Of a stretch of DNA of 64,000 nt, positions 2,882 through 62,867 are shown piece after piece. The stretch lies in assembly GCA_963377175.1 (NCBI GenBank), contig CAUJNA010003090.1, positions 581,476-645,475 of the forward strand, given 5' to 3'. The stretch's first letter is position 1; every line of letters starts with the position of its first letter. Made by a program: the position numbers and the translations under genes. The notes beneath the pieces were generated by a model. The model did no database searches. It was not told where the DNA came from and saw only the letters and a list, made by a program, of their open reading frames with translations. The DNA comes from Effrenium voratum (lineage: Eukaryota > Sar > Dinophyceae > Suessiales > Symbiodiniaceae).

Positions 2882-3101
2882 CGCACAAAAAGACAGTCAT
2901 TCGAAGAGGAAGGCTGGGGCCTAGAGTTTCATGTGCAAAGCATGATTCTTTCATATGGGTGCACGTTCTTGAGGGTAATTACCCCCTTTAGACTTGTTTC
3001 AAAGGGAAACCAACGGAAAATTACCAATTGTGGTGGGTCCCCCTGAAAAAAGACAGCGCCATATTCTTTCAGCCACCGCCAGCGCCCTCCGTGAGAAGTA
3101 A
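2882..3101 (+). CDS. Possible gene 3' end: two exons joined across a family A element
   Basis: Exon one is 2882-2958, after a CCTTCCTAG acceptor, and reads RTKRQSFEEEGWGLEF then HVQSMILSY. Exon two is 3053-3101 and reads QRHILSATASALREK, ending at TAA 3099-3101. Between them is a 94 bp segment that starts GTGCAC and ends AAAAAAG, nearly identical in extent to the family A element at 2957-3060. Removing it keeps the frame, with the split codon GG|A. The terminal peptide is short and no family is recognised. The splice call is made from sequence only. Confidence 0.4.
2957..3060 (+). mobile_element. Family A element with perfect ATAT target duplication
   Basis: The 104 bp element starts GGGTGCACG and ends AAAGACAGCGCC. 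It is flanked by ATAT at 2953-2956 and ATAT at 3061-3064. Its core carries AAAGGGAAACC and ATTACCAATTG. The element supplies both candidate splice sites of the gene end at 2882-3101. Confidence 0.75.
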
Positions 3102-3191
3102 TTTTAACAAGGTCACGGCTCACATGTGACAGCCCTTTGGATTCACTCAGGGACCAGGTCTTCGTTTCAGGAAACCCAAAAATGGGTGTTT

Positions 3192-3250
3192 TGCTTTTTG
3201 TTTCCCTTTAAACCATCCCAAATCAGGTACAAAAAGACGAGCCACCCTTA
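3192..3250 (-). mobile_element. Short family A copy
   Basis: This is a shortened copy: GGGTGTTTTG, then GTTTCCCTTTAAACC, then GACGAGCCACCC. It directly adjoins the donor side of the minus-strand exon at 3261-3345. Confidence 0.55.
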
Positions 3251-3260
3251 TTTTCGCCAC

Positions 3261-3345
3261 GCGCCCGGCGCCCGGCGGAGCGCGGGCGCCTCCCGTAGCT
3301 GCTGCCAGGCAGGAGGCAAGCCCTCGGCCAGCACCGAGGCTCGTC
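3261..3345 (-). CDS. Possible internal exon (85 bp), unknown protein
   Basis: A minus-strand acceptor GATCAG precedes a GC-rich segment reading RASVLAEGLPPAWQQLREAP and then an Arg/Ala-rich tail. The donor would be GTGGCG, and family A sequence begins within about 15 bp of it. No stop occurs in this frame. The other frames are also open, as is common at this GC content, so the frame choice rests on composition. No family was recognised. Confidence 0.3.
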
Positions 3346-4266
3346 CTGATCTGACCCTCGGACCCTTAGCGGTTGTTTCGACCACTGCTTAGACTGGGCT
3401 GTCCTCAGATCACTCGCTCAAAGCTTACCCTTTAGCCGGGTGAAATGGGAACAGGTCTCCCACTGAAAGTGACTCGCTTTGAGTGGGTGAAAGGGGAACT
3501 ACCACTAAACACCAACAAGATCCAAAAAGCAAAAGGAACCGGATGGCCGGGAACCACCAAGCAGACCAGTTGGTACCGATTCGCCGTGGGCTCCGAGGAC
3601 GTTAGAATTGATCCATTTGTTCGTCGGTTTCTCGCGGACGGCTTCGTGGCTATCGTTTTCTTGATGTTAAGGTCTGACTTGGTGGCAAGTTGTGTGTTCT
3701 TTTGCGGCAATCGGGTTCAGAAAACACCCCACTTGGGGGTTTTGGCAGGTCCCTATTCCCTATGAGACGATCCCAGTAGGTTGACTACTTTGTCGGTTGA
3801 ACATGTCAAGATTTGCAGGGAACAATTTGAGAACCCATTGGATCTTACGATGGTTTGTGGTCAGGTTATACAATGGTTTGATTTGGCCATTAGGCTCTCG
3901 GACAACAGCGGAGGTGTGCCTAATCACTGCGAACATACAGATGGTTGATGGGTTGTGGGTGAAGCGGAATTCCCAGACAGGACTGACTGAAAATTGGGAA
4001 TGCCCCAACATCACGTGGCCCGAGCTCAGCTTGTCCCTGCATCGAAGAAACAACATTGGTTGATTTTATTTCAAACGGTTCTATCAAAATTGACTAGACA
4101 CAGCGCACCGTTCCATCCGTCAATCTGGAGACACAACAAGTTCCCAAAATAGTAGTTTACGGTTCCCCGAACAGTTGTTTTCTTGGCTTCCTTGCCACCT
4201 GCAATTCAAAAAGAACAACAACTGACTATATTGTTGGTGGGTTCCAACAAAACTGCCACTTGGCCA

Positions 4267-4369
4267 TGGGTCCAAATCCCGTACCCCCAGTGAACATCCC
4301 AATCCCCACTAAAATAGACTAAAATGGGTGGTGCACCTACCCCAAAATGGTACTATTGGTTTTGACCCA
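4267..4369 (+). mobile_element. Family B inverted-repeat element
   Basis: The ends are TGGGTCCAAA and TTTTGACCCA, an imperfect terminal inverted repeat. The interior is closely similar to 41552-41657, and to 21174-21272 in inverse orientation. All carry AAAATGGGTGGT followed by CACCTAC. Confidence 0.65.
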
Positions 4370-4406
4370 CTGCCACTTTTGGAGAGTCCCCATCCCAATC
4401 AAAGAC

Positions 4407-4490
4407 CGCGCCTCGCCAGCTCTCGCCGTGCGCCAGCGCCAAGACACGGCGCCGCGCGGCCTCCAGGCGCCGCCACGCCTGCAGCCCCGC
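4407..4490 (-). CDS. Possible internal exon (84 bp, phase 0)
   Basis: On the minus strand, CGCTCAG is followed by exactly 28 codons reading AGLQAWRRLEAARRRVLALA, HGES and a short end. The weak donor is GTCTTT. The composition is an amphipathic, Arg/Ala-rich helix. It starts AG|GCG in phase 0 like the exons at 8959-9045 and 6981-7067. The family B element at 4267-4369 lies in the following intron. No function is assigned. Confidence 0.35.
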
Positions 4491-4539
4491 CTGAGCGCTG
4501 GGCGTTGGACACGGAGTTGCCGTGGCTTGAGCGCGTTCA

Positions 4540-4656
4540 TCTGGGTGAATTATAATATTTCACCAACCTGAAATAAACAAGGTGGTTGGGGGGCTATTCC
4601 CCACATAAACCACCATTTGGGGTGAGGTCGCGTGAGGTCGTTATAATTCACCCAGA
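4540..4656. mobile_element. Complete family C miniature inverted-repeat element
   Basis: It has 16 bp perfect terminal inverted repeats, TCTGGGTGAATTATAA at 4540-4555 and TTATAATTCACCCAGA at 4641-4656. They are flanked by the direct repeat TTCA at 4536-4539 and 4657-4660. The element is 117 bp and non-coding. This is the cleanest MITE-type structure in the window. Confidence 0.85.
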
Positions 4657-5370
4657 TTCATTTATTACCAGGGGACGGTGGATCAACCACAAGAGGATCA
4701 AAGGGACAATCACCAGGGACTGTCATCATTTCACTGTGGATCAATATGTTCAACCAGGGGACAAGATTCTAGTCCTTGTTTTTTTTGCTGGTGCGAGAGA
4801 TGCAGGGAATGAGAAATGGAATGACCCTCACAAATGCCATCCAACTGGTGGTTTCCTCTAAGAGGACCCCTCGGCTCGTTCCCACATTCCCTACTGAGCG
4901 CCAGCAAGTTTTGTAGGGCTCCCTAGATTTCCCTGCAAAACATCACCCTCAAGGGATACTCACTGTTTAAAACTGCCAAAAAGGGAGGGGAACGTGGGAC
5001 AGTCCCTTAATGCTTTAATTTAAGCCGGCGGGAAGAGCAGCACTTTGGACATGTGTGTACTAAGTTTAATCCAAACGACCCATGTTTAGTCTCGACCACC
5101 CCCCCCCCGAATGGGAACATAGTGACCCTTCTTGGGCGGCTCGAGAGTCGGAGAGGTTGCCTGCCTCAAGCTGTGAGAGGCGGTAGGGCGGCGAGGTCAA
5201 CGACACGCGGCTCCAGGGGATCCTGGCTCCCGGTTTTTCTGAGTCCCCTTCGAGTTCGCGTTGCGTGAGGAAATGGGTATGCGTCAGCAGGGATTTTGGA
5301 CCCCCCCAAACAAAAAGACGAAGAACAGTTCGCTTTGGTTTCCCGAAGAACAAAACACCATAAGAAACTA

Positions 5371-5410
5371 ATGATGTTAACCCCGGATGAATACACCCCT
5401 GGTTGAGTTT
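5371..5410 (+). repeat. Family D end fragment
   Basis: The segment GATGTTAACCCCGGATGAAT matches the left inverted repeat of the complete family D element at 35711-35839, apart from one or two bases. The right end was not found nearby. Confidence 0.45.
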
Positions 5411-5520
5411 GATCGGGGTACCCCTGGGAATCCGGATCGCTTTCGTGGGTGCGTCTAGCTTGGAAACGGTCTGGATGTGGCGAATCTGTGGAACCACCCC
5501 TGCAGGATATTACAAAAGAA

Positions 5521-5768
5521 TCAACCAAGGGAAGAACAGGTGAAATCCACAAAACGCGCATCCAAATCGTTGTCTAGCAGGTCCAGCTTCCGCTCCTTGA
5601 CGTCGTAGTTGGACATTAGGGGACCCCCAAAATGGTTGGCGTCCCTTTGGTCTCCCTTTAAACCAGCCACAAAAAGGGAACCCGCAAAAAAAGACACACC
5701 CATCTCCTCGCCTGCGGTCCAGGCGGTCGGATCTCCGCAAGTCCCGTCGGCGATGTGGGTTGGGGAAG
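5521..5768 (-). CDS. Possible gene 3' end: two exons joined across a family A element
   Basis: The upstream exon ends at 5700 and reads TGLAEIRPPGPQARRW in the chosen frame. The terminal exon, 5595-5521, reads ERKLDLLDNDLDARFVDFTC plus SSLG and stops at TGA. The 104 bp removed (5699-5596) begins GTGTGTC and ends GTCAAG, and is almost entirely a family A element. The junction is in phase 0. The start of the upstream exon is uncertain; a GACCGCAG acceptor lies at about 5712. No family was recognised. Confidence 0.4.
5615..5701 (-). mobile_element. Family A element
   Basis: Reading the minus strand it starts GGGTGTGTC, carries GGTTTAAAGGGAGACC and ends GGGGGTCCCCTAA. The outer inverted repeat is missing at the low-coordinate end. 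It sits between two coding-like segments (see 5521-5768). Confidence 0.7.
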
Positions 5769-6330
5769 TGAAAGATGGGGAACTGAAAGAAAACCATTTT
5801 GGCCAACCCGCAACAGCTAACCCTCACTTTCGGAGTGGATTGGCCAACGCAAGGCTTTCTGTTTGCCACTACGGTCTTGCCCAAAAAGGTTAAAGCCCAT
5901 GAACTCGGGGAATGAGAATTCAGACCAGGCAAGCTAAGTCAAATGATCCCAAACTTTGCCGCCTTTTTGAGCTTCACATTCAAAGGTCAGATAAATGACA
6001 AATCCTTGGTGTGCATTGCACAGGCTCTTGCACACCCCCAACCCAACTCAGCCCAGCCTGATGAGGATTACCTCGGAGTGTGGACACGGCAATCTGGATC
6101 CCCAACACCCCCAAGGGCCCAAGGGCCCTCCCCCTATTTTTTGAGGTCTTTAAATGTCAGCCCAGGTCTTGGGCTAGAGGGCTCCCTTGCGCTCCGGATG
6201 ATGAACTGCTCCACTTTGGAGAACTCCCTTTGAAAGGCCCAAGCTGATGCTGCAACATGTGGCTGCTGTGCGAGCCGACGGGAGTTTCTCTAGCAAAAGA
6301 GTGTGTGCGTATGTGGCCGCTTGTTTGGGT

Positions 6331-6390
6331 CTGTGTGTGTGTGTGGGTGTGCGTGCGCGTGCGTGTGCGTGTGCTTGTGTGTGTGTGCGT
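6331..6390 (+). repeat. TG/CG microsatellite
   Basis: Alternating purine-pyrimidine tract of GTGTGTGT with interspersed GCGTGCGC. ORFs across it are artefacts. Confidence 0.9.
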
Positions 6391-6770
6391 CATCTTTGCC
6401 CTTGTGTTGGGGCCCGCTGGGCTTTGCCCAAAAGGTGCCCCTTTCAGGTGCCTCCTTGAAGAGGAAGTCGAAGGACCAATGGAGGGGCTCCCCCTATTTT
6501 TCCCAGGCGAATCTCGGTCTGGTCTCTCCATCCTTCCAAACTTTAGGGTAGCAAAACAACCCTTCCAAGAGCGAGGGCTTCTACACTTGGGGTCCCAATG
6601 GAACACAACTGCACCAATCGAATTAGACACCAAAACACCTGAGGCACCCGAGTCAGAATCAAACCGATCGGTACTAAAATAGTTCACTCAGAACAATGTA
6701 ATGAAACTAACAAGCAGCACCCATTTGGCTGGGATTACCCACCTTCATCTACCTGAGCTTTGATAGTGTC

Positions 6771-7690
6771 TCACCTGAGGGAGCGGCGAAAAGGTTCAAT
6801 TTGGAGCCCGCAACCCAAACGATATCTTTGGGTTACAAAAGCACCCTTCATCTCTTTTGTGTCATAATTGAAACGTTGAATGTCCTTCAAAGGAATCCCG
6901 CTCCGTAAAAATGGCTTTCCATTTACTCTCTACAAGAACCAGGGGTTCGAACCTCCAAACCACCACTCCAAACCAAATACCCACGTGCGGACCTCCGGAT
7001 TTGGGCCCCCCGCAAAGCGCAGGCCCATCTGCGGGTTGCCGGCCTCGGCCAAGCTCTCGCGAATCGCCTGGCCGCGTGCTTTTGGTTTGCGGGTCAAAAT
7101 GTGAGCATGCCCAACATGTAAAAAACAACAGACAAGCCACAACGTCGCCCAACAAATAGTGGCCCAACCAGTAAAAATAATCGCAAATCAATCATGAGGG
7201 CTGCGATTGGGACTCTAATGTGCTCACTCGCTGTATTTTGATGACGGCCGCACTTAGAATACGGAACGAGTTGGAATGACCCCAAACTTATCAATTCAAT
7301 TGGTGTAGTTTTTGTTCAAGTGGATCCCCTTCCAGCCCTGGTTCCAACCAGGACTTACCCTACTTGGCGTGCAGCCAACAACCCTGGCTTATTCTGTCGA
7401 TGGACAAAATCAGCGGGTTGTTTACCCCATCATAGGGCTTCATTCATCCATCCCTGCAGGATTTGGTCTATCCACAAGACCCAGGAATTGCCCAGCCCAC
7501 TTGGAGCACGTAACCAGGGTTCATGACCACATACCTAGGGTGGTCAGCCAGAAGAACCCGCAGCACCCGCCAGCCCCGGGCCCTGCAGGCCCAAGCGTCC
7601 AAGCGGTTTGTCCCTGCAAGAAAAGAAACTGAAGATCTCACTTCCCGGGAATCGACCAGAAACCGCTCAAACTTTGCGCTGACATCATGC
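6771..7690 (-). CDS. Three-exon gene 3' end, unknown protein
   Basis: Exons on the minus strand are 7690-7642, 7067-6981 and 6884-6771. The first follows TTTGCTAG, reads HDVSAKFERFLVDSRE and ends at a good donor, GTGAGATC. The second is exactly 29 codons (AIRESLAEAGNPQMGLRF and on), with acceptor GGCCAG and donor GTATTTGG. The third follows CTTTGAAG, reads DIQRFNYDTKEMKGAFVTQR and on to RRSLR, then TGA at 6773-6771. All junctions are in phase. The last intron (96 bp, 6980-6885) is a family E element. An alternative reading runs from the first exon through to about 7545 without splicing at 7641. No protein family was recognised. Confidence 0.5.
6885..6980 (-). mobile_element. Family E element forming a candidate intron
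   Basis: Reading minus it starts GTATTTGGTTTGGAGTGG, contains GGAGGTTCGAACCCC and GTAAATGG, and ends CCTTTGAAG. The same sequence family recurs at 17322-17390, 26016-26070, 28399-28485, 48085-48145, 55272-55390, 56121-56207 and 61385-61445. The GGTTCGAAC core resembles a tRNA B box, but no A box was found. Confidence 0.6.
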
Positions 7691-8749: not shown

Positions 8750-8792
8750 CCCTATTGATCAACTGGGGTTTATTAATCCGGGGCTAACATCA
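8750..8792 (-). repeat. Family D end fragment
   Basis: TTTATTAATCCGGGGCTAACATCAA matches, in parts, the right inverted repeat of family D at 35711-35839. The copy is partial. Confidence 0.45.
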
Positions 8793-11481: not shown

Positions 11482-11889
11482 TTATGTCCTCTTCTCCAGA
11501 GCTGCTGAAGAAGTTGGACAACAGCGGACAAGATTTGGAGATTGAGGCCATGAGTCAAATGGAAATGCGTTTTTGGGTGTCTTAAAACAGGGGAACCCCC
11601 CAAAACATGGCGGTTTCCCATTTGGTTCCCTTTAAGTAAACTCCAAAAGGGGTACCCTCAACAAAAGACAGACCCATTTCGTCACAAGGCAGCGATTCAC
11701 TTCCCTGTCTCCGGCCGATTCCGGTTTCGTTTCCAAAGGCCTTCCCAGAGTTGACCCCTCCAGGCCCTTTCCACAGAAAATGGTCGCCAGGCAGCCAGGC
11801 ACCTCTATAGGGCAGCTGCTTCCTGTGCCTTGTTTTTGCATGCTTGTTTTGAAGGCGGGCCAACCTTTCCAAGCAACCACATCCTCCAT
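11482..11889 (-). CDS. Possible small two-exon gene, ATG to stop
   Basis: An ATG at 11889-11887 in a good context (ACAATGG) opens 72 codons, ending REVNRCLVTKW at 11674. The next 93 bp start GTCTGTC and end TTTTAAG, and are the family A element. The second exon, 11580-11482, reads TPKNAFPFDSWPQSPNLVRC and on to LEKRT, then TAA. The spliced product would be about 104 residues. The donor context is not ideal. A plus-strand ORF (11151-11585) covers the same bases but runs through repeat copies. No family was recognised. Confidence 0.33.
11575..11675 (-). mobile_element. Family A element, both ends present
   Basis: GGGTGTCTTAAAACAGGGG at the left and AAAAGACAGACCC at the right are inverted repeats. 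The core has GGTTCCCTTTAAG and GGGGTACCCTCAA. The flanks are TTTT and ATTT, an imperfect duplication. Confidence 0.75.
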
Positions 11890-15252: not shown

Positions 15253-15421
15253 TTATGCGGAACCGAATCCATGGTTTCGCATCAAGGTGAGCTCTTTTGG
15301 ATATGGGTGGGGATCCCCAAATTGTGGTCTTTGTTTCTTCGTTTGCAACCAACCAAAAAAGGGGTACCAACTCCAGAAAAAGCACACCCATATTAATCAT
15401 GCTGTCCAATAAGTCCTGAAC
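15253..15421 (-). CDS. Possible gene 3' end: two short exons around a family A element
   Basis: After the acceptor TGTGTTTCAG, exon 15421-15388 reads VQDLLDSMINM. The intron 15387-15294 (94 bp) begins GTGTGC and ends CCAAAAG. Exon 15293-15253 reads ELTLMRNHGFGSA and stops at TAA. The split codon G|AG is in frame. The intron is family A plus the TSD copy and four bases. Both exons are short, so a chance match cannot be excluded. Confidence 0.35.
15305..15389 (-). mobile_element. Family A element with perfect ATAT target duplication
   Basis: The 85 bp copy runs from GGGTGGGGATCCCC to AAAAAGCACACCC. It is flanked by ATAT at 15301-15304 and 15390-15393. It carries GGGGTACC and CAACCAACC in the core. 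Confidence 0.75.
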
Positions 15422-15659: not shown

Positions 15660-15754
15660 CTGGCCAGGGGCGCAACAGAACTGCGCCGTTTGTTTGGAGA
15701 ACCCTTTGGAACACCCAAATTAAACCTGTTCTCGAGGCAACTGGTGTTGGGAAA

Positions 15755-15830
15755 CCTCTTTTTTTTGGTCTCCAAGGAAACTCAAAGGAACTGAACCGAA
15801 AGGAAACCAGCCATTTTGGGGTTCCCATAA
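15755..15830 (+). mobile_element. Family A copy, degenerate
   Basis: Contains GAAAGGAAACCAGCCATTTT followed by GGGGTTCCCATAA. The left end is blurred by a T run. Confidence 0.5.
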
Positions 15831-16057
15831 CTTTGGGACACTCCAATCGAGTTCACTTCCTGAATGGTCGGAAAAGGGTCCGGATTTGTTGGTTAAGAGG
15901 CCCCCCGAAAAAAGTTTGGAGTCCAGAAACTGGGGAAGTGAGGAAGCTTGTAATATGGAAGTGTCGTTTTCTGAGTGCACCGTTCTTTTGGTCGCTTTAA
16001 AAGGAAACACACACACAAACACCACTCTCTTTGTTGGCGGGGGGTGCGGGGTCCCCG

Positions 16058-17471: not shown

Positions 17472-17564
17472 TGGGTCAAAACTATGTACCCAAAATGGGT
17501 TGCCCTGGGAACTGGAAACCAGGACTCAAACCTGCGGTCCATATCCTGGTTTCATTTTGACCCA
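17472..17564. mobile_element. Family B element, subgroup 2
   Basis: The ends TGGGTCAAAA and TTTTGACCCA are perfect inverted repeats. The interior CAAACCTGCGGTCCATATCC is shared with 59055-59150 but not with the other family B copies. Confidence 0.75.
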
Positions 17565-17609
17565 TACCCACATTCCACAAATGGCCCATGGCCCAAAGCG
17601 ACCTGTCAC

Positions 17610-18697: not shown

Positions 18698-18859
18698 CTG
18701 CGGAGAGCAAAAGCAGCGTGGCACAAAGTTGACCCTAGTTGACTTTTGTTGGGGGGTGTTCGTTTTAGTGGGGTGTCACTCCACTTTTGTGGGTCCTGTT
18801 GGTTTCCCTTTCGACCATCCCCAGAAAGGGACCCTCATACAACGTATCCCCCTTTATTT

Positions 18860-18962
18860 GGGTGTGTCTTGTTTTGTGGTCCCCGTGCTTTTGTGTCTTT
18901 AAGGGAAACCACGAGGAACACCACCATTTTGGGGACCCCCCAACCAAAAAAACGACACGCCC
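18860..18962 (+). mobile_element. Family A element with perfect ATTT target duplication
   Basis: The 103 bp element starts GGGTGTGTCTTG and ends ACGACACGCCC. It is flanked by ATTT at 18856-18859 and 18963-18966. The core has AAGGGAAACC and CCACCATTTTGGGGACC. A second, degenerate copy precedes it at about 18785-18850. Confidence 0.8.
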
Positions 18963-26070: not shown

Positions 26071-26424
26071 CTGATCTGTGCCTCTCTGGTCCCCGGAATC
26101 CCAATCTGGAAATCTGGTGGCCCGAAGGCCGTTCGAACCCCATTCTCGCGGGGAGAAACAAATTGAACGACGGGGAAAAGACATGCGTCTGTTTCTAAAA
26201 TAAGGGAAACAGAATGGCAACAGCTTCCTGTTGGTTTACCTTTAATACCAACTCCAAAAGGGTACCCTTCGCTCAAGAAATCCGGGCACACCCAACCATT
26301 TCGGGGTCCCCGCGAGCGCGAGCGGGAGTGGGAGGAGCGGAGGGCAGGGTGACGAGCCTCGGAGATTGGACTTTCTCGGCTCCGGAAAGCGCCGTCACAT
26401 CTTCGACGGTTGCTACCGTCGACT
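26017..26424 (-). CDS. Spliced gene 3' end: exons separated by family A and family E elements
   Basis: Exon 26424-26292 follows AAACCCAG and reads STVATVEDVTALSGAEKVQS and on to GDPEMVG. The next 97 bp (26291-26195) start GTGTGC and end ATTTTAG, and are the family A element. Exon 26194-26071 reads NRRMSFPRRSICFSPREWGS and on to SGDQRGTDQ, ending exactly at a donor CAG|GTAGAG. The following intron begins with family E sequence. The last exon would be only QLEGS or LEGS and a TGA at about 26001-26003. Two long open segments joined in phase, with good splice signals, make this one of the better models. Function is unknown. Confidence 0.5.
26200..26293 (-). mobile_element. Family A element forming a candidate intron
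   Basis: Reading minus: GGGTGTGCCCGG, CGAAGGGTACCC, GGTATTAAAGGTAAACC and CCCTTATTTTAG. It lies exactly between two coding segments (see 26017-26424). Confidence 0.75.
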
Positions 26425-33036: not shown

Positions 33037-34586
33037 GTAAGAGGAACCAATTTCTACTGCGGCGTCCCTAACGGCTGTCTCCGGTTTCCATGAGTTTGAC
33101 AACCCGGGCAGTGTGAGACTGCGTTCATTTGGCAAGCGCTTGGAAAGTGCGGTAGCGAAATTTACGTCGCTGCTGCCCCTCCAAACAATCGGTGCTGTGG
33201 GAACAAGCTTACACATGTTCTTACCTACCCTCCCTACCAATCATGGAAGCTGACCATCGGAGGGCTTTGGAAGACTACTTTCCTTTTTGGGGAACCCTCT
33301 GTCCACTTCCATTGTTGGAATCCCTGCAAGGAGGGAAAAGGTTGTTGTCAGATTCTAGCCAACAAATAATTTTGAAAACCCCAGCTAAGGTCCCTAAGTG
33401 CGGATTTGTTTCTTCCAACCAGCGCCCCAGCTGGGCAGTTTATCGAGGGCCGCATCCGGCTGAGTTTCCGTGAAACACGCCACTTTCCCGGAAGTCAAAC
33501 GCCTGGGAATTGGTATCGCCAGCACCACTTTCCAGGTAGGCAGATCCTACATGCCGGGATTTCTCTGAACCCCAGGCCCTACAGTAAAAAGGTCCACCCA
33601 CACGGTGACTTGATGCACAAAGGGCGACTGTGAAGCAAGTTCTTCGGTGGTCACGGGTGCCCTGCACGCATGCCACATCGACTGGATGTGTCTCGAAACA
33701 GGGGAGCCCTCGAACTGATCATTGTCTCTGAGGCTTGCCTTCAAACCGTCCGAACAAGAGTGCCGAGGACCAAACAATGACACACGAACAAGAATCCCCC
33801 AGGGTCACGGTAAGACTTTCAGAAGGTATTCCAACAAAAAGCGTATCTGCAATTTGTACAATGCCGAAACCTGAAACAAGACTTGTATCCCCAAGCAAAG
33901 CTTTTTCGAAACACACAGGCCGGGAGATCCGAATCCCAACTAATCGCACATAAGGGAGTCCCTATGCAAGGAACCTTCATAGGTCGCAAACCCCCGAAAC
34001 ATGACGTGAAAACCGGATGTTAGGGGCATCGCGCAGGACACCCTTCACCGCTGGAGCCGGCATCACCTGAACGAGCGGACAGTCGCGTTTTTGATGGACA
34101 ACATCCACGCCGCTCCCTGGTTTGTGCCAGTATTCATAGGGCTTCATCCATACTGCAGGATGTTGTCCAGAAGTATTTGAGGAACAAACACTCTAGGCAT
34201 TCAAAACAGAAAGCAGACGGACGGCAAGCGGTTTAAACCGGGCCCCTTCGTTTGCCACCCATTTGTCTGTAATCTCGAATAGAAGGCTCCTTTTCGAAAC
34301 CCCCCAAAGCAGAGAAAAAACAACACCCATGCATAGCTCCTTTACTCCCATCTGAGACGCCCAGTGGGCTGCTTCCTTTTTTCCTATTTTGGAAGGCCAA
34401 TCCTTTTGAAATCAACCACTAAAAAAGAGCTTCGTTTCTTTCCCACATGGGCTTCGCTCCTTTTAGCCCCGAATCGAACCGAACAACCATGATTTTCCTG
34501 TTTAGTTTCCCCTTTCATCAAGATGCCAAAGGGGTCCCTGAAAGCGCGCACACACACAAATCAACCGTAAGCACAAAATGCTTCAG

Positions 34587-36114: not shown

Positions 36115-37004
36115 CGTGAGAGCGGTCGAAGCCGGTCAAAGTGTAAATAAATGCATGTGCCTCCAAACTCCAAACCAATCTGTGCAAAATGGACAGAAAC
36201 CGTCTGTGCCTTTGAAAGCTGCAGGCTCGGCAGGCCCTATTCCGGGCGTGGTTCCGAGTCAGGCTAGATATTCCAAACGGGTGGGCGAATTGTGCTGGGG
36301 AGCTCGCCGGGTGTTGTTTGCTCTTTTGGGATTCCTGCAGTTTCCCTACTGACCAGCTAATTCCTGCTTGAGATGAAATTGAGTTTTCACTGAAGACGTC
36401 TTAAAGGAAGACCTGCAAAGTTCAAACCCCAGAAAGGGAACAACCTTAGATCAAACTCCTTAAACTCAGATGCCCAGTGGCCCATGGGGAAACAAGGGCA
36501 TCCTTTTTGGTTGGTTGACTTTACAGGGGAACCCTTCTCAAAAAAAGAGAAAAGAAAACAGGCTTGAAAGGTTGCACCGCTGGGAAATGGGTATACGGGC
36601 CATGGTGCTGGATTCCCACATCGGGCCGACCGGCAGATTCGACCGAACCTCACGAGGATGCATCCGCCAAGAGAAATTCGGCACGAGGATGTGGCATGGA
36701 CCGGCCGAATTGAAAGCGGAGCGGTGTGAGATGGCCCATAGCTATGGGGTCCATTGGCTGGGCCGCAAACTTCCGTTTGCTTTTCAGCCAACAAATGAAT
36801 ATGTCCGCTAGTAGTGAAATTGATTCCCTTCAAAGCCAAGAGGGGAAATAAAGCATATTCTTAAGCAAATGGAAGGAAAGGACGAAACACAAGTATCAGC
36901 CGTCTCTCTTGCCGGCTCCCAGTGGCAAATCCTGCGCTGGTGTCCTTTTCGGCAAAAAATATCGGTTGCGAAATCGGTCCAACGCGGATGTCGTGTCTAG
37001 GTGC

Positions 37005-37080
37005 CCTTTTCGGTGTTGTGTTTTGTTCCTGTACCGGGAAACCAAACGGAAAGCACCGACCATTTTTTGGGGAGGGTTTT
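37005..37080 (+). mobile_element. Family A copy
   Basis: TTTTGTTCCTGTACCGGGAA, then ACCAAACGGAAAGCACCGAC and CATTTTTTGGGGAGG. Confidence 0.5.
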
Positions 37081-39463: not shown

Positions 39464-39772
39464 TCAAGTGAAGGGAGCAAGTGCCCAATGTACTGAGCGC
39501 TCTGCGGCATCTTCAATCTCTTTGGAGTCAAGTGCTCCTTGTTCTAGGGCCACCAGCCACCTTTTGAGACCAGACAAATCCTCGGGGGGAAAAAACAGTG
39601 TCCGGTGGAAGCCCAGCGTGGTATGAAACCCGACTTAGGGAACCCCCGAAAAGGGCGTCTCCTTCTGGTTTCACTTTGAAAACTGCATCCAAAAAGGGGC
39701 ACCCTCACGAAGAGAGACTCCCATATGAATTCCTATGAACCCCTACTTCACACCACTTGTGACGGATGATTC
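39464..39772 (-). CDS. Two-exon gene 3' end across a family A element
   Basis: Exon 39772-39719 follows TGCTTTTTTAG and reads IIRHKWCEVGVHRNSYG. The intron 39718-39634 (85 bp) starts GTCTCTC and ends CCCTAAG. Exon 39633-39464 reads GFHTTLGFHRTLFFPPEDLS, GLKRWLVALEQGALDSKEIE, DAAERSVHWALAPFT and stops at TGA. The terminal exon has a very protein-like, acidic-helical composition. The plus strand is much poorer. The junction is in phase (A|TC). The donor is GT but weak. No family was recognised. Confidence 0.5.
39634..39722 (-). mobile_element. Family A element forming a candidate intron
   Basis: Reading minus: GGGAGTCTCTC, GTGAGGGTGCCCC, CAAAGTGAAACC and GGGGGTTCCCTAAG. It sits exactly between the two exons of 39464-39772. 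Confidence 0.7.
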
Positions 39773-39899: not shown

Positions 39900-39980
39900 G
39901 AGTCTCCATGACCCTAAAAATAGGTCCACGACCCCATTATTTAGGGTAATGACCCCATTTTTAAAGGGTCATGGAGACTC
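39900..39980. repeat. Inverted repeat with 15 bp perfect arms
   Basis: GAGTCTCCATGACCC at 39900-39914 pairs with GGGTCATGGAGACTC at 39966-39980, followed on each side by AT-rich inner arms. The outer flanks both carry ACTCTAACTG, like a target duplication or a larger direct repeat. Confidence 0.8.
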
Positions 39981-40146
39981 TAACTGGTGGTTTTCCCAGT
40001 GGTTTGCCTTGAAACTCTTCGAGAAAAGACCCGAGGGTCCATGGTAACGATTTCAGGCCCCAAGAACGCATTCCGAAACCTGAAACAAGTATAGGTGCCC
40101 CAAGTAAAGGCCCCACATCATGGCTTTTGCTTTCTATTCGGGCCAG

Positions 40147-41934: not shown

Positions 41935-42010
41935 GTCACAGTGGTTGTCCTTTCGGTTTCCTTTTAATACCACACACGAAGGGGTATATAGCCTCAAAAG
42001 ACAAACCCAC
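41935..42010 (-). mobile_element. Family A copy
   Basis: GGTTTCCTTTTAATACCACA, GGGGTATATAGCCTCAAAAG, ACAAACCC. Confidence 0.5.
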
Positions 42011-42101: not shown

Positions 42102-42655
42102 TCAGGGTTGCACCGGTTGAGACAGTCCTCCAATTCCAATGGTCCTACCCTGGGACCTGTCTGGCCTTCGCCTCCTGAGTTCCTGGACTTTAAGCTTGGG
42201 GTTGGACCATTTTAGTGTAACAAAGTTTAAAAAGGAAACCCAAAGGACAACCACATTTTGGGCGCTCAAAAAACGACATACTCACTTGTTTGCTTGACAC
42301 AATCTTCCCAAAAGGAAGTGAGTTGACACTTCGCTGTGAGGCAAAAGCCCTTTCTGAGGCTAGCTGCATAGAGCGCGCCCAAGGACCGGACGCCCCCTCG
42401 AGGCGGTGCACATGCTTCGAAAACAAGTCTGTCCTTCGCCTGAGGCAATGATGTCCGAAGTTTGTTTTATCACCGGATGCACAACACCACAGGCATCGAT
42501 GGACCGGAGCGATTGATGTCTCGGCTTTCTGGGATTGATTTCTTTGGGGTCCGGAAAAATGGGGAAAAACAGGCAACCCTCTGGGTCGAACCATGGAAAA
42601 AGACCATGGGTTGCTCTTTGCGCCCTTGGCATCAGGGCATCTGGAAACTGGGGTC
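42102..42655 (-). CDS. Three-exon gene 3' end, best-supported model
   Basis: Exon 42655-42474 follows GATCTCTCCAG and has 60 codons: PQFPDALMPRAQRATHGLFP, WFDPEGCLFFPIFPDPKEIN and on to ACGVVHP, with donor GTGATA. Exon 42439-42286 follows CATTGCCTCAG and reads AKDRLVFEACAPPRGGVRSL, GALYAASLRKGFCLTAKCQL, TSFWEDCVKQT. It ends at a perfect donor GTGAGT. The 98 bp intron 42285-42188 is a family A element ending TTAAAG. Exon 42187-42102 reads QELRRRRPDRSQGRTIGIGG, LSQPVQP and TGA. The phases agree throughout. The first intron would be only 34 bp. Exon 43109-43260 may lie upstream in the same gene. No family was recognised. Confidence 0.5.
42188..42285 (-). mobile_element. Family A element forming a candidate intron
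   Basis: Reading minus: GTGAGTATGTCGTTTTTTGA, GGTTTCCTTTTTAAAC, CACTAAAATGGTCC, ending CTTAAAG. The consensus donor GTGAGT coincides with the family A edge. Confidence 0.65.
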
Positions 42656-43108
42656 CTGGAGAGATCATTTATTCCCACTTGGAAAGGTATGCTTTTTGGT
42701 GGTTCCCTTCTGGTCATCCAGTGTTTTTGCCGGACCTTTTGATCAACCTTCAAATGGTCTTACCAATATTTAATAGCCACATGGGAAGTCAGGGATACGT
42801 ATCTTGTTTCCATCACCAAACTTGCAGGACTCTCAGCAAGCGGAAACCCGAAACACTGAAGGCTTTACCCTGCAAGCCGCCAGGGTGTGTTAATCGGTCT
42901 TAGTTTCCCCTCAATACAACAAGACATGCGGAGAAAAAAAAGAAGAAAAAAAAACAGCACCCATTTGCAGAAGCACCTTCTTGGGGCAGATCTCTGTTTT
43001 TTTTGCTCCTTGTTTTTTCTCCGGGAGTCGCTCAACAACAAATTGCGGTACTTCGCACACATTGGGATTGGTAACTTGCCTGGGGAAATGGCCACAAACA
43101 CATCCAAC

Positions 43109-43260
43109 CTGAAACCCAGTTGCCCCGTGATCCTGGTAGAAACTGGCAAAACCAAAAAAGCAACACCAGAACACGCCCTTGACGAAACGCGGAACGCGGT
43201 TTGGTCCTCGAAACCGGTCCTTCGATTTTTTAGTCGGCCGGTGGTGACGACAGGCACCCG
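43109..43260 (-). CDS. Possible internal exon (152 bp), upstream of 42655
   Basis: Acceptor ATTTGCGCAG, donor GTTGGA after TTTCAG. It reads RVPVVTTGRLKNRRTGFEDQ, TAFRVSSRACSGVAFLVLPV, STRITGQLGF. The minus strand stays open for 186 codons around it (42865-43425). The plus strand is open too. Confidence 0.38.
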
Positions 43261-44519
43261 CTGCGCAAATCGTTTTGGAAGACCGAGTGCTGGCTGGAAC
43301 TTTTGGGCTTCAAATGCGGGTTGGGGAAATTGGGGCTGGGGGAGTCTCGCTTCAAGTGTTGCCCAAAATTGGAAGCCAACAATCTGGAAGCGTTCTTGAG
43401 CAACTTCTCCATTTGCGGAAAACACAAATAGGAAAACACACTATCAAATGTGTCCAGTGATCGATTCCCGTTGAAACCTGCAGGGGAACATACACAAAAT
43501 ACTCGTAAGCAAATGAAAGCAACAGGTTCAAATTGGAAGCGTGTTGAAGTCGTACCATTGGGACTCTCCAGCCTGGCATTGGGGTTTGCTTGGGGTCTTG
43601 TGGCAAAGCTAATGCTCAAATGACCGCCCAGTTGTACCTTTAACCAAAGGGGGTTTCTCTTCCAAGGCTTCCCCATTAAAGCTTCACAGCTTTAATTTTG
43701 AGTAGGACTTCTATTGGCTCCAACCAAAAGCAAGGCTAGGAAATGATCTCAACTCATGCCCCCTCAAAGTTCCCAGAAACGGAACTCAAGGCCCAGAATG
43801 CCTGTGGCCCGCTTCATGACCCACAAGAAACTCAACTTAACCCCGCCGGGCCCGGGAGGCGAGGACCAGGTTAGGTGAGTCACCATGTAAAGTAAGCTGA
43901 GCTTACCGGAGAGGAACGTGTGGCAGTTCCAGCTTGCAGCACGCTTGCGTTGCCGGGGGCCGCGCATTTTTTTATTTGACTCGCTCATGGTCTGGGGCAT
44001 TGCGTCAACGTTTTGCCACGAAAACGCCACATGGAGACGATGCAGAAAACCGCCGCTAGGTGGCAGTAATTGGACCAGCGCATTCAACGAGATCTGCGCT
44101 GGCGACTCATGCAAGCACTGCCCCATCTCCATGAGAGATTCGCCGACGAACATAGGAGTTGATGTCTCCTCTGGCGAATTATATGCGAGAGCGAGGGAAA
44201 AAACGCCCGCTTGGCATATTGGTGACTGGCATTTCAAAGGGCCGTGAGACTGTTTTTGCTGAGAGACTCATGGCGTCCAACACCGGCACTCGAGTCATGC
44301 CTGACTGATACCTGACTCAAGACCGTGCACAGTGCTTTCAGGACAGAACGAGGGCGCACACAAAAAAACAGCTTCCTGCGAAACCTCCTTTCGACGAATT
44401 CGCATCAAAATGCCGTTGCTCGGTGCTTTGCCCAGAGCCCTGAAGAGAGCGGCAGCGCAAGTTGCAACTCAAAAGCCTCAGCGTGCGAAAGAATTTGTGA
44501 TCCCCACGAAGCCACATGA

Positions 44520-48472: not shown

Positions 48473-49305
48473 TCAGATTCTGCTGATTTCACGCTGAATC
48501 CCCGAAATATCACCTAAGTTTGGAGGAGACCCCGGCACACTCCCCGGAACCCTTTGGCAGAATGCTCCATAATTAAGCCTCCTCCGGCTGCTGCAGTTCA
48601 CCCAAATATCACCCAAACTCCTTGAATTGCATCCCGGCTTTCGGGTATCCGAGCTCACCCAAACAGCCGCAGCCCTCCGGAGAAACGCGCGGAACAGTCG
48701 AATTGTCGGTCCCCAATCTGCCCCGAAATCTTGTCCTGCGGGGAAAAACATCAGCCCAGGTGTTTCCCCAGCACAAAATCTGGAAGCTCTGGAGCCTTGG
48801 GCTGACGTTGAGCTGCTCTTCAAACCAAGTTCCCAGTCCTTCCCATGGTAAGGTTCCACATGGGTCGTTCCCGTTGCATCTCTCCAAGTGATTGGTGAAT
48901 CGTGTTGGAATGTAGAAAGTGAACCAAAAAGGCGCCAAACGCCCCCTCCCATTTACAGAACAACCCGGGTGACCTGAAAAGTCTGCGCTTGCCTCCCTAG
49001 CATCACTCAAGGTTCGGGGAGAGGCATGATACGGGGTCTTAAATTTAGGGAACCCGAATTGTGCTGGTTGCTCCTGTTGGCTTCCCCTTAAAACCGACCA
49101 AAAAGGAGCTTCCGGGAAAGAAAACACGCACCACCATCGTGGAGTCCCAGTGACAGGAGCCCCGTCTCGCCCAAGCTGCACCGCTTGATCCCCGGCCAAG
49201 GCGCTCGTTGGAAGGGTTTTCCCAGTGAAAACATCGTGGCAAGAACAACACCCCGCCTTCGCTTGAAGGCTTCCTTAAGATGCGAAGCAAAACGTGGAAT
49301 CTCAC
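48473..49305 (-). CDS. Three-exon gene 3' end, family A element as intron
   Basis: Exon about 49305-49135 reads ENPSNERLGRGSSGAAWARR then GSCHWDSTM and ends at GTGGTG. The 97 bp intron 49134-49038 is a family A element ending AATTTAAG. Exon 49037-48974 reads TPYHASPRTLSDAREASADF and ends at CAG|GTCACC. Exon 48879-48473 reads DATGTTHVEPYHGKDWELGL, then GETPGLMFFPAGQDFGADWG, PTIRLFRAFLRRAAAVWVSS and on to QREISRI, then TGA. The last segment is open for about 135 codons. A good internal acceptor and donor (48736, 48658) also exist there, so alternative splicing or a different frame is possible. No family was recognised. Confidence 0.48.
49033..49135 (-). mobile_element. Family A element forming a candidate intron
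   Basis: Reading minus: GGTGGTGCGTGTTTTC, CCGGAAGCTCC, GGTTTTAAGGGGAAGCC, CGGGTTCCCTAAATTTAAG. Confidence 0.7.
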
Positions 49306-49798
49306 AGCTCTCCGAAGTCGGGAGGCGACAGGGTTCTAGTCAGAAATTCTGGGAGGCATTTCTCAAAACATGAAATGTATTTCCGATGTTGCACCCTGTC
49401 TTTGGGGTGGTCATTTTTCGGGAAGCCAAAAGCAAAACCAACCATTTGCTTCTTGCGGGGAGGGTGTGTGCATATAGTTTGATACATACCCCCAGGTTGA
49501 GCTTGTCGTGTGTTGAGGCTCGATACCCCAACATGGGTCGTCAGTTTGACACTGAGTGGATTGGTCTCGGTTGAAAGGTGGGTGTTAATGGGACATCATG
49601 TTGTTGGTTGGGAGAGGAGTTCCCGTAAAGCAGACAGACACACCCACCGATAAATATGGGCAGAGAAGCGCCAAACACGTCGATGGATCAATCCCAGCCC
49701 TCACCCTGCCATAATCAGTGCGAAGCTCCGGCCTTTCCCATGTAAGGATTCCTCAGCCCGGTCGATTGCTCCCTTCGAACTGGTTCCAAACAGGCTTT

Positions 49799-49895
49799 GG
49801 GGGGTGTGAGTGGTTTTGGAGAACCCCCCCCTTTTGGAGTGGTTTTAAAGGGAACACAAAAGGAGAACCACCGGTTTGGGGGGTCCAGACACACC
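49799..49895 (+). mobile_element. Family A element
   Basis: GGGGTGTGAGTGGTTTTGG at the left, GGTTTTAAAGGGAACACAAA in the core, GGGGGGTCCAGACACACC at the right. Confidence 0.7.
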
Positions 49896-53600: not shown

Positions 53601-53687
53601 GGTTTTTCGTGTGTTTTTTTTGGGGGGGGGTGGTCTTGGAGGGAAGCCAACACCCAAAAACCACGAACTTTGGGGGTGCCCTAAAAG
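53588..53687 (+). mobile_element. Family A copy with G run
   Basis: GTGTGTTTTTTTTGGGG, AGCCAACACCCAAAAACC, TTTGGGGGTGCCCTAAAAG. Confidence 0.55.
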
Positions 53688-53836: not shown

Positions 53837-53938
53837 GGGGTCTGTCTGTTGCGAGGGTTCCCATTTTGGGGTGGTTTTCAAGGAAAACCAAAAGGAACAC
53901 CACCATTTTGAGGGCTTCCCTAAAAACAAACACTAATT
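53837..53938 (+). mobile_element. Family A element
   Basis: GGGGTCTGTCTGTTGCGAGG, GGTTTTCAAGGAAAACC, CACCACCATTTTGAGGGC, TTCCCTAAAAACAAACAC. Confidence 0.65.
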
Positions 53939-55800: not shown

Positions 55801-55809
55801 TCTTCTGCT

Positions 55810-57000: not shown

Positions 57001-57159
57001 AGCTAAAGCTTGAATCCAAATCCACACCACCCATCCAACTAAGGGTTCCACAGCAATGGTCGGGTGGGTCGACAACAAAGACGCACCCAGGCTGGTCACC
57101 CAGGTACTGGAGACCTTTGTCTAGTATGTACGTTGGGAGTCGAATCATTCCAGGGTTTC

Positions 57160-58700: not shown

Positions 58701-59054
58701 CAGGGGTGTCCACAAAACTGGGCTCCAGCCTACGCCTGTGCCTAAAAGCGGCCGAGATCCCCAGTGTGCAAAAAACAAACTCAGGAACACCCTCACTTTA
58801 AAGGGCCCAGAAAGAGACATGAAGTTTCGCACTGGAAACTCTGACGAGCTCATCAATCAGGAATACCCTTAGTCGACTACGTCTTCTCAAGTCAGGCCTG
58901 CGCCGGTAGCTTCCACCGTCAAAAGAGGGCTGCGTTTTTCCAAGTGAGGCGCGGAAAAAGCGGCCGCGCGTTGGCAGACGTTTGAGATGCGAGGCCTATG
59001 TCCACTCCCCTTTTGCCTGCTCAACTCGGGTCTGAAGCCAATTCGACTTTGGTG

Positions 59055-59150
59055 TGGGTCAAAAGTAGGGTAACACCAAAATGGCTTGCCCTGGTAGATG
59101 GAAAGGACTAGAACCTGCGGTCCATATCCTGGTGGTCCAATTTTGACCCA
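59055..59150. mobile_element. Family B element, subgroup 2
   Basis: Perfect inverted ends TGGGTCAAAA and TTTTGACCCA, with GAACCTGCGGTCCATATCCT inside as at 17472-17564. Confidence 0.75.
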
Positions 59151-59624
59151 TACCCACTTGGCTCAACCTAACGGAAGCCACGAAAAGGCGACCGGTGGGA
59201 TTTTCCTGGAAAAGGCGTCACCTGTTTTTCCCTTTAAAAGGCGCAGTTCACTGGGGTCCGACAAGAACATGCCACTGTTGCAGGTCCGAACAAGGGAAAT
59301 TCGGGGATCCCTGATACATGTGATGATTGTTCTAGACTCTTTTTTTGACATCTTGCTAGTATGCGGTTACTCCCTAAACGCAAAACAAAAGAAGGAAGCG
59401 GACAAATACGCCCTGATCCCGAGAAACTCCGATCAATTCTTTGGGGCTGGGAACTGGTCTTCTTGCCACCAGCACTGGGCAATGTCTTATAAGTCACAAA
59501 GCCGGAATGAGGATTTCCCAAGTAATTACCTTTCATCATGGGCAGTCCCTTCCTCTTACAAGAGGGTCACAGGTTCTCGGGCTGAGACCAGATCCGCTTG
59601 CGCTAGCCGATTTTCCAGCTATTA

Positions 59625-59885
59625 TATATATATATATACATACATAGTGCACATCTAATACACACATGTACAAATATGAATTATATATTTATAACCCTTA
59701 GTATGCTAGCAAAACTGTGTGCTTTGCACGAGTATATGCATACATACTATATATGTATATATGCATATATATATATATCTATATGTATGTATATGTATAT
59801 ATATACATATATGCATTCGTGTTTTTATGTATACATATATGTATATATATGCATCCAATACATATATACATATATATATACACAT
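59625..59885 (+). repeat. TA/CATA/TGTA microsatellite tract
   Basis: About 260 bp of TATATA, TATGTATA and CATATATA words. Confidence 0.9.
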
Positions 59886-60900: not shown

Positions 60901-61003
60901 GGGTGTGTCTTAGAATAGGGGACCCCCAAAATGGCGTCGGTTTTCCTGCTGGTTTCCTTTTAGAACCCGCCAAAAAAGAGTACCCTCGAAAAAGGACACC
61001 CCC
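60901..61003 (-). mobile_element. Family A element, both ends present
   Basis: GGGTGTGTCTTAGAATAGGG at the left and AAAAGGACACCCCC at the right. The core has GGTTTCCTTTTAGAACC. The flanks are ATAT and AAAT. A splice across it does not give a convincing frame. Confidence 0.8.
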
Positions 61004-61170
61004 AAATAAATTTATTTTGGCTTCCAGAGCGCCATGGGCTCATTGGTCAACCATGTTCAAACAAACCCAGGTACCCAAGCGTCGGCCCTTGGAATTCTAT
61101 ATGAGAAACCTCTTGCTGTGAGCAGATGACTGAAGGAAAGCCTTGCCCAGATCAACTTGACGTAACCTAG

Positions 61171-61336
61171 CGGGAAATCAGCTACAGAAGCTGAACTACA
61201 TTATAATACCCATGGGTGTGTTTTCTTGTTGAGGGAACCCTTGTTGGGTGGTTTTAACGGGAAACCAAAAGGAAAACCAAACCCAAAATGGACAGCCTTA
61301 AAAAGACAGCCACCCAAAAATCGAGATTCTGGTTAG
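61171..61336 (+). CDS. Possible gene 3' end: two short exons around a family A element
   Basis: Exon 61171-61215 after ACCTAG reads GKSATEAELHYNTH. The intron 61216-61305 (90 bp) starts GTGTGT and ends TTAAAAAG. Exon 61306-61336 reads QPPKNRDSG then TAG. The split codon GG|A is the same as at 2958/3053. Both exons are short, so support is modest. Confidence 0.32.
61214..61315 (+). mobile_element. Family A element forming a candidate intron
   Basis: GGGTGTGTTTTCTTGTTGAG, GGTTTTAACGGGAAACC, AAACCCAAAATGGAC, AAAAAGACAGCCACCC. Confidence 0.75.
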
Positions 61337-61470
61337 CAACGTACAGTACCTCCCCTGAGGCACCCTCGAACAGAAAACACACACTACTTGGCGGTTTAAA
61401 CAATCACCCCAAAAGACCAATCCAAACCACCTTTTGGGGTGATGTTTCAATCCGCTAATTAGAGGCAAGC

Positions 61471-61605
61471 CTAAACTCGGGCCACCTCTGAAGTGCTCGC
61501 CTGTTGGTTTCCCTTTCTATAAATCCCACCGCCGCGTCGCCGGGATCCGCTGAACTCGTCAAACCCCTCGGTCGAGTCGGCCTGTGAGGACTGGGCCATC
61601 CGCTC
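61471..61605 (-). CDS. Gene 3' end: exon plus short terminal exon
   Basis: After GATTTCTCGCAG, exon 61605-61530 reads ERMAQSSQADSTEGFDEFSG then SRRRG, with donor GTGGGA. A 42 bp segment containing family A core sequence ends CACTTCAG. A terminal exon 61487-61471 adds EVARV and TAG. The coding frame also stays open upstream (ANPKRDKGEWIDF), so the exon may start earlier, near 61660. The Ser/Arg/acidic composition suggests a disordered tail. No family was recognised. Confidence 0.45.
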   Translation of the reverse strand, partial: ERMAQSSQADSTEGFDEFSGSRRRGGGIYRKGNQQASTSEVARV

Positions 61606-62046
61606 CTGCGAGAAATCGATCCACTCGCCTTTGTCTCGTTTCGGGTTGGCGCCCGGGGACTTCCCGCAAGTTTGCGGGGGGAAAGGGAAAATGGCGGAAA
61701 AATATGAGAAAATATCTACTAGTCTAAAATCTAAAAAAATCTGCCCAGCTATCCCCAACAGCCCGAAAAGAACCGAGTCTGCTCTTGAACCCTCACTGCA
61801 ACGCTGCAACGCTGCTCCCAAACCACCCCAGAGCTTAGCTCGGCCGATCGACCAAATCCATTTCCAGCTGCTGGGGAAAAAACATGAAAAGGTGAGCTAA
61901 GTCAGAAGACCTTTGGCACAACGTTTGTGACTTTTTGGCGGGATACGACATAAAATTTCGAATCCCATGAACAAAGGATGAAATTCGCGAAGAGTTGCCC
62001 AAAGGCTCTGTAGAAGGAGGACGGCAAGCCTGACGCCTGTTCAGAC

Positions 62047-62361
62047 TCAAAACCAATCGGGAGGGAACCCGTCCATGCCATGCATCTTAATGGACCCGAC
62101 ATGGTGGACATCAAAATTCCGTGAGGATGTATGTCCACCAACCACTTGCCAGGAAAACTTGACAAACTCAAAGCTCTCAGCCCGAATCATTTTGTGAAGC
62201 TGAAAATGAATTCGCAACATGGGGTTGTCTCAAAATCTGTGACCGCCAAAATGGTTAATGCTTCCTTTGGGTTTCCTTTAAAACCAACCAATTCAAAAGG
62301 TCCCCTCGAAAAACACAAACCCAAATCAGACCTCAAAAGAGATTCCTCCGAACTAGGCCCT
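62047..62361 (-). CDS. Three-exon gene 3' end with two element introns
   Basis: Exon 62361-62321 follows a strong acceptor (GCTGCATTCACCTCAG) and reads GPSSEESLLRSDL. The intron 62320-62229 is the family A element (GTTTGTG to TTTTGAG). Exon 62228-62146 reads NPMLRIHFQLHKMIRAESFE then FVKFSWQ. The intron 62145-62086 (60 bp) is a family F element (GTGGTTGG to CCATTAAG). Exon 62085-62047 reads MHGMDGFPPDWF and ends TGA. All phases agree. The composition is convincing, but the family is unknown. Confidence 0.52.
62086..62145 (-). mobile_element. Family F foldback element forming a candidate intron
   Basis: Reading minus: GTGGTTGGTGGACATACATC, TTTTGATGTCCACCATGTCG, GGTCCATTAAG. The GGTGGACAT/ATGTCCACC arms make a hairpin of the whole intron. 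Confidence 0.65.
62221..62322 (-). mobile_element. Family A element forming a candidate intron
   Basis: Plus: GGGGTTGTCTCAAAATCTGT, GGTTTCCTTTAAAACC, CCCCTCGAAAAACACAAACC. The flanks are ACAT and AAAT. Confidence 0.7.
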
Positions 62362-62749
62362 CTGAGGTGAATGCAGCGAAACAAAAACACAAAGTTCGGC
62401 AAACTTGTCTGGGGATGCCCCGAGGTGCCTGGGGCCAAAAGGGGTGACACCACCTATGGAAATGGGCCTCGATGCATTCGATGCTTTCTCAAAGCCCTGC
62501 AAGTTCTTGCTCGCTGATCGTACCGCGCCAGACCACCGGCGTGAGCTGACCACTGGTCCAACAGTCAGCTTCCCGCCAATTGGTGGTTCCCGTTGACTCA
62601 GAATCAGGGTTTCAAAACACCTGAAGCAAATACAGAATTCCTAGTCCTCAAATCCAATAAGCCCTTAAACCACCAGTTCTCTGGCTTACCTGCTGTTAAC
62701 GCCGGATTAATAATCCCTTAATTAATGCATTGGGAAGGCAAATCCATTT

Positions 62750-62867
62750 GGTTGTCTTTTTTGAGGGCACCCTTTTGGGTAGTTGTTCAATCGGAATCCA
62801 AAACGAAACCAACCATTATCAACCATTGCTGGGGGGGTCCCCCCCAAAAAAAACAGATCACATACCC
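62750..62867 (+). mobile_element. Family A element with perfect ATTT target duplication
   Basis: It starts GGTTGTCTTTTTTGAGGGC and ends AGATCACATACCC. It is flanked by ATTT at 62746-62749 and 62868-62871. There is an extra C/A run near the right end. Confidence 0.75.

What the first reader, a model, noticed from the sequence alone, without database searches (positions are those of the whole stretch)
2957..62867. Family A: about 25 copies of an introner-like inverted-repeat element
A 60-118 bp element with ends GGGTGTGTCTT/AAGACACACCC and a conserved core (GGTTT.CCTTTAAA..ACC, GGGTACCC, CCATTTTGGGGG) recurs across the window. Perfect 4-bp duplications flank copies at 2957 (ATAT), 15305 (ATAT), 18860 (ATTT) and 62750 (ATTT), so it moved by transposition. 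At ten sites, cutting out the element with a GT near one inverted repeat and an AG at the other edge joins coding-like segments in frame. The sites are 2959-3052, 5596-5699, 11581-11673, 15294-15387, 26195-26291, 34-like at 39634-39718, 42188-42285, 49038-49134, 61216-61305 and 62229-62320. Introners are reported from dinoflagellates. The proposal that this family creates introns here is inference.
Basis: partly seen in the sequence, partly recalled or inferred. Interest (0 to 1): 0.85.

Follow-up and report, generated by a model that had tools for sequence, protein, structure and literature searches.

The report
Common dinoflagellate mini-transposon, not intron maker
The repeated element is real: an abundant, old, roughly 100-base inverted-repeat mini-transposon in a dinoflagellate genome, but tests of gene structure, splice rules and insertion sites give no sign that it makes introns.

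Summary
The repeat is real. A profile finds 27 copies in the window at E<1e-3, against 2 on the reversed window. The four stated perfect 4-bp duplications are there. The host is a dinoflagellate (251 exact spliced-leader 21-mers, control 0). The terminal 11-mer occurs 11,279 times in the 1.16-Gb assembly (control 699). About 103 bp, near-palindromic, with an ANNT target duplication: a MITE-like DNA transposon.

The intron claim is not supported. The ten joined peptides reach no Pfam cut-off. Exact excision does not open frames more often than shifted excision. Of 29 dynein heavy chain introns mapped by alignment none is Family A; two carry it inside. Those introns end AG|G in 23 of 29, the proposed ones in 1 of 10. 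Introners of similar architecture are already published for Symbiodinium (PMC9860276). Limits: one gene family, no RNA data, and a count of AGGT insertions, which would give perfect introns, did not complete.

The parts
1735..1784 (-). Family A fragment
   Evidence: E 2e-4
2957..3060 (+). Family A copy, 104 bp, TSD ATAT
3158..3238 (-). Family A copy
   Evidence: E 7e-9
5616..5701 (-). Family A copy
   Evidence: E 1e-16
11575..11675 (-). Family A copy
   Evidence: E 4e-18
15305..15389 (-). Family A copy, 85 bp, TSD ATAT
15747..15842 (+). Family A copy
   Evidence: E 8e-7
15961..16030 (+). Family A fragment
   Evidence: E 2e-5
18753..18841 (-). Family A copy
   Evidence: E 5e-6
18860..18962 (+). 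highest-scoring window copy, 103 bp, TSD ATTT
26225..26278 (-). Family A fragment
   Evidence: E 9e-7
33687..33785 (-). Family A copy, degenerate
   Evidence: E 9e-5
36999..37072 (+). Family A fragment
   Evidence: E 4e-5
39636..39721 (-). Family A copy
   Evidence: E 2e-8
39974..40026 (-). Family A fragment
   Evidence: E 6e-5
41941..42008 (-). Family A fragment
   Evidence: E 3e-9
42203..42281 (+). Family A copy
   Evidence: E 4e-7
49036..49128 (-). Family A copy
   Evidence: E 1e-8
49392..49447 (+). Family A fragment
   Evidence: E 7e-5
49802..49895 (+). Family A copy
   Evidence: E 1e-15
53610..53686 (+). Family A fragment
   Evidence: E 6e-5
53838..53933 (+). Family A copy
   Evidence: E 2e-21
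60901..61003 (-). Family A copy, 103 bp, imperfect TSD
61214..61279 (+). Family A fragment
   Evidence: E 1e-12
62221..62322 (-). Family A copy, TSD with 1 mismatch (ACAT/AAAT)
62750..62867 (+). Family A copy, 118 bp, TSD ATTT
63180..63238 (-). Family A fragment
   Evidence: E 2e-6

Best explanation
Family A is an old, very abundant MITE-like family (non-autonomous DNA transposon) of a dinoflagellate: about 103 bp, near-palindromic, with terminal inverted repeats GGGTGTGTCTT/AAGACACACCC and a 4-bp ANNT target duplication. Shown: copies, ends, target duplications, divergence, and copies inside long introns away from the splice sites. Inferred: a transposase encoded elsewhere acted on the terminal repeats, cut the target with a 4-bp stagger at AT-rich palindromic sites and pasted copies in, which have since decayed; the family does not as a rule create introns.
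For: Copies: 27 in the window; 11,279 exact terminal 11-mers genome-wide against 699 for the reversed control. Patterns with an intact left TIR, CCC at the right end and matching 4-mers on both sides: 99 hits for ATTT and 98 for ATAT, control 0 each (some ATAT places are hit on both strands, and a few ATTT hits look like duplicated contigs). TSD: 10 of 51 two-ended copies identical over 4 bp, 28 of 51 with at most 1 mismatch; 0 of 5000 shuffles of the right ends reach 10; shifted offsets give at most 2. Target motif (C)ANNT(G). Two Family A copies lie inside dynein introns of 649 and 872 bp. The 150 longest window ORFs (of 333 of at least 80 aa) gave one Pfam match below E 1e-3, at 7.9e-4.
Against: No transposase or autonomous partner was searched for. 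No empty site was found: 0 of 40 joined-flank queries aligned across the junction in held DNA. 75 of 141 hits lacked recognisable ends and were left out of the TSD count, and at least one near-identical pair remains among the 51. Hairpin stability: only one of four window copies folds better than all its shuffles (z -3.05; the others -1.40, -0.47, -0.93).
Confidence: 0.87

Rival explanations
1. Introner: Family A inserts into exons and is spliced out, so that copies are whole introns.
For: Introners with TIRs and 4-bp TSDs are published for Symbiodinium microadriaticum (PMC9860276, section read). All ten sites can be joined in frame. One joined peptide (2959-3052) had a sub-threshold Pfam hit across the junction (Glu_cyclase_2, E 0.011, 15.7 bits, cut-off 22.3), not backed by a PDB sequence search.
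Against: 824 of 1000 random intervals pass the joining test. 0 of 29 mapped dynein introns is Family A. Proposed acceptors AG|G 1 of 10 against 23 of 29. With 90-base flanks exact excision leaves an open frame in 25 of 50 copies, shifts of -2, -1, +1, +2 in 34, 28, 34, 28; in a second set 19 of 40 against 23, 27, 23, 27. The target is AT-rich, whereas PMC9860276 reports that gene-enriched introner families tend to favour GC-rich motifs.
Confidence: 0.06
2. Occasional introner: the family is a MITE, but rare insertions at AGGT give AG^GTGGG...CCCAG^GT, a perfect intron, and some of these persist in genes.
For: AGGT fits the ANNT target motif, and the resulting AG|G acceptor fits the introns mapped here. 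Inference otherwise.
Against: No AGGT flank among 51 two-ended copies. One of 51 has GT before and AG after its called ends, without a TSD and with 3 and 2 mismatches in its ends (the copy near 33684-33787). The genome-wide AGGT count did not complete (and later), so this rival is not excluded.
Confidence: 0.07

Closest known systems
MITEs (miniature inverted-repeat transposable elements)
   Same: About 100 bp, TIRs, fixed-length TSD, high copy number; too short to encode a transposase.
   Different: Parent transposase superfamily unknown. A 4-bp TSD with GGG-like termini recalls Sola2; that is recalled, not tested (one search gave a listing only).
Introners of Symbiodinium microadriaticum (Gozashti et al. 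2022, PMC9860276; sections 7, 9, 20 and passages read)
   Same: TIRs, 4-bp TSDs, similar length (their example interval is 115 bp), dinoflagellate host.
   Different: [quoted passage not shown] Family A ends in CCC, favours ATTT/AAAT/ATAT, and no mapped intron coincides with it.
Introner elements of Amoebophrya (Farhat et al. 2021, PMC7789003; passages read)
   Same: Inverted repeats with short direct repeats.
   Different: Those are defined as introns of annotated genes; Family A was found here in DNA without a recognised gene and inside longer introns.

Membership tests
MITE | Short element with terminal inverted repeats | tested here: met
   51 of 141 hits have both ends with at most 3 mismatches each, 81-126 bp
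MITE | Target site duplication of fixed length | tested here: met
   4 bp: 10/51 identical, 28/51 with at most 1 mismatch, 0/5000 shuffles reach 10
MITE | High copy number, dispersed | tested here: met
   11,279 exact TIR 11-mers against 699 control; 44 of 60 loci fetched for such an 11-mer hold a Family A hit
MITE | Mobilised by a related autonomous element | not tested
   No transposase search was made
Introner | Copies coincide with spliceosomal introns | tested here: not met
   0 of 29 introns inferred by alignment in dynein heavy chain genes; 2 of 29 hold it inside; one gene family only
Introner | Reading frame restored when element and one TSD are removed | tested here: inconclusive
   No excess at exact excision in 50 and 40 copies, but the test has little power if most copies lie outside coding DNA
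Introner | Splice sites supplied by the ends or the TSD | tested here: not met
   Ends GGG..CCC with ANNT; 0 of 51 with AGGT; proposed acceptors AG|G in 1 of 10
Introner | Enrichment in genes | tested here: inconclusive
   5 copies in the 20 dynein loci, some of them duplicates, against 27 in the 64-kb window; 7 in 22.4 kb of four longer dynein stretches that partly overlap those loci; no annotation available
Introner | RNA evidence of splicing | not testable with these tools
   No transcripts held

The most novel reading that the evidence does not exclude
A dominant dinoflagellate MITE family whose ANNT target preference occasionally yields AGGT insertions that splice perfectly, so that a conventional MITE seeds introns by chance rather than as a specialised introner.
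Probability: 0.1. Interest if true: 0.55.

Novelty: new member of a known kind. Interest (0 to 1): 0.22.

Why it matters
It documents one of the short repeats that fill a dinoflagellate genome (3.5% of this window). It also shows that 'GT..AG joins open frames' is weak evidence for introners in DNA rich in chance open frames. If an AGGT subset were spliced, it would link ordinary MITEs to intron gain.

Tried and rejected
Joined-peptide homology: Pfam on the ten reader junctions. The best, Glu_cyclase_2 at E 0.011 under its cut-off, was followed by a PDB search (two weak restriction-enzyme matches, E 0.39 and 1.4) and by reading the three + frames of about 1-7200 by eye (no further motif seen); taken as chance. 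PAP2 in 1 of 150 ORFs at E 7.9e-4 and Luciferase_cat at E 0.0042 under its cut-off in 42868-43440 were not followed. Rfam: no match at gathering scores. tRNA: none. Empty sites: 0 of 40 in held DNA; the genome was not searched for them. Resemblance of the CCATTTTGG core to the spliced leader: considered, not tested. Roy et al. 2023 (Curr Biol) is not held; known here only as cited in PMC11453091 (passages). Paper searches. I saw their listings and did not find this element named there, which is no proof that it is unpublished. The ATAT pattern was chosen because it was the second commonest TSD seen; AAAT, the reverse of ATTT, was not searched apart.
Full report
Host and copy number. The window lies in a 1.156-Gb assembly of 3699 contigs that holds 251 exact copies of the dinoflagellate spliced-leader 21-mer (reversed control 0), so the host is a dinoflagellate (the motif is recalled from general knowledge). 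The exact terminal 11-mer GGGTGTGTCTT occurs 5720 + 5559 times against 333 + 366 for the reversed control. Not every such 11-mer is Family A: the first four hits listed (L001-L004) have no profile hit.

The element. A profile was built from 22 genome copies found with the window copy at 18860 and rebuilt. It finds 27 copies in the window at E<1e-3 and 2 on the reversed window. They cover 2216 bp (3.5%). The consensus is 103 bp; its two 51-bp arms are 73% complementary over aligned bases, with 6 gap positions. Of 60 loci fetched for an exact 11-mer (L043-L062, L083-L122), 44 hold a Family A hit somewhere. Folded as RNA, one of four window copies is more stable than all its shuffles; three are not.

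Transposition. From the DNA held by then (141 hits), 51 copies had both ends within 3 mismatches; 13 were dropped as duplicates, 75 for poor ends and 2 at edges. At least one near-identical pair remains among the 51. In 10 of 51 the flanking 4-mers are identical and in 28 of 51 they differ by at most one base. Right ends shuffled among copies gave a mean of 2.8, and none of 5000 shuffles reached 10. The preferred target is (C)ANNT(G). Genome-wide patterns with an intact left TIR, CCC at the right end and matching 4-mers on both sides gave 99 (ATTT) and 98 (ATAT) hits, with 0 for the reversed patterns; some ATAT places are listed on both strands. Median identity to consensus is 0.85, so I read most copies as old (inference).

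The intron test in the window. For each of the ten sites I asked whether a GT and an AG within 12 bp of the ends, on either strand, join open frames of at least 10 codons on each side. All ten do; so do 824 of 1000 random intervals of similar length. The mean best joined length is 139 aa for the sites and 98 aa for the random intervals. Pfam: none of the ten joined peptides reaches a cut-off. Among the 150 longest ORFs (of 333 of at least 80 aa; the ten scanned are among them) there is one match below E 1e-3. Since exons matched in this genome can be near 90 bases, short exons in the window cannot be excluded.

The intron test in known genes. Dynein heavy chain genes were located with PF12774. 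Introns were inferred by aligning spliced translations to the intronless copy in L063, allowing GT, GC or GA donors and AG acceptors and taking the best score: 20 introns (five loci left out as duplicates, gaps over 2500 bases and non-contiguous matches skipped) and 9 more in four further stretches. GT is the donor in 2 of 20 and 3 of 9; the rest are GC or GA. The acceptor is followed by G in 16 of 20 and 7 of 9. None of the 29 introns is Family A. Two hold it inside, at 128-242 of 649 bp and 106-179 of 872 bp. Further copies lie between matched exons whose introns were not resolved (L163, L165). This is one gene family and a small sample.

The frame test. If copies were introns that split exons, removing the element and one TSD should leave an open frame more often than removing 1 or 2 bases more or less. 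With 90-base flanks, exact removal leaves an open frame in 25 of 50 copies (one of 51 lacked flank); shifts of -2, -1, +1, +2 in 34, 28, 34, 28; shifts of -3 and +3 in 25 and 24. A run on 39 largely overlapping copies showed no excess either. For 40 copies with perfect TSDs, chosen from the lists in the order printed, the numbers are 19 of 40 against 23, 27, 23, 27, and 20 and 21. Other flank lengths show no clear excess. The small deficit at in-phase shifts is unexplained and may be chance. The test has little power if most copies lie outside coding DNA.

Splice logic. For a clean intron with this family's TSD rule the target would have to be AGGT (AG^GTGGG...CCCAG^GT; inference). None of 51 copies shows it. 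The genome-wide count was asked for repeatedly and never answered.

Comparison. Gozashti et al. 2022 (PMC9860276; sections 7, 9, 20, the abstract and matched passages read) report S. microadriaticum introners with TIRs and 4-bp TSDs. Farhat et al. 2021 (PMC7789003, passages) report introners with inverted and direct repeats in Amoebophrya. A review (PMC11453091, passages) cites Roy et al. 2023 for introners in dinoflagellates. Whether it is related in sequence to a published introner family could not be tested.

Verdict. A real, abundant, ordinary MITE-like family. Intron creation is unsupported, and where tested in known genes it was not seen; a rare AGGT subset remains possible.

Noticed in passing
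window 59053-59157 and 17489-17572 (the latter also in L013); L126, L034, L029, L080: A second roughly 100-bp inverted-repeat family (ends GG..TGGGTCAAAA / TTTTGACCCA..CC, core near GACCGCAGGTTTTAGTCC), with 4-bp ANNT-like flanks by eye. In L126 it abuts a Family A copy with ATAT between them. It also matches part of a 743-bp dynein intron in L080.
   Followed up: partly
L001-L004 (contig C1, positions 95 kb to 3.19 Mb of 4.93 Mb): The four exact 11-mer hits there are not Family A; among the eight C1 loci fetched, Family A hits start at 4.39 Mb. To the eye the first part reads like dense coding DNA, so the contig may be contaminated or chimeric.
   Followed up: no
L063 (contig C234:67002-67982): An intronless dynein heavy chain stretch (open frame of 1460 aa) among intron-rich paralogues: a retrogene or another organism's DNA.
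   Followed up: no
contig C722:109307-122977: Dozens of exact spliced-leader 21-mers on one strand, spacing often near 136 bp, in a listing capped at 100 places: a likely spliced-leader gene array.
   Followed up: no
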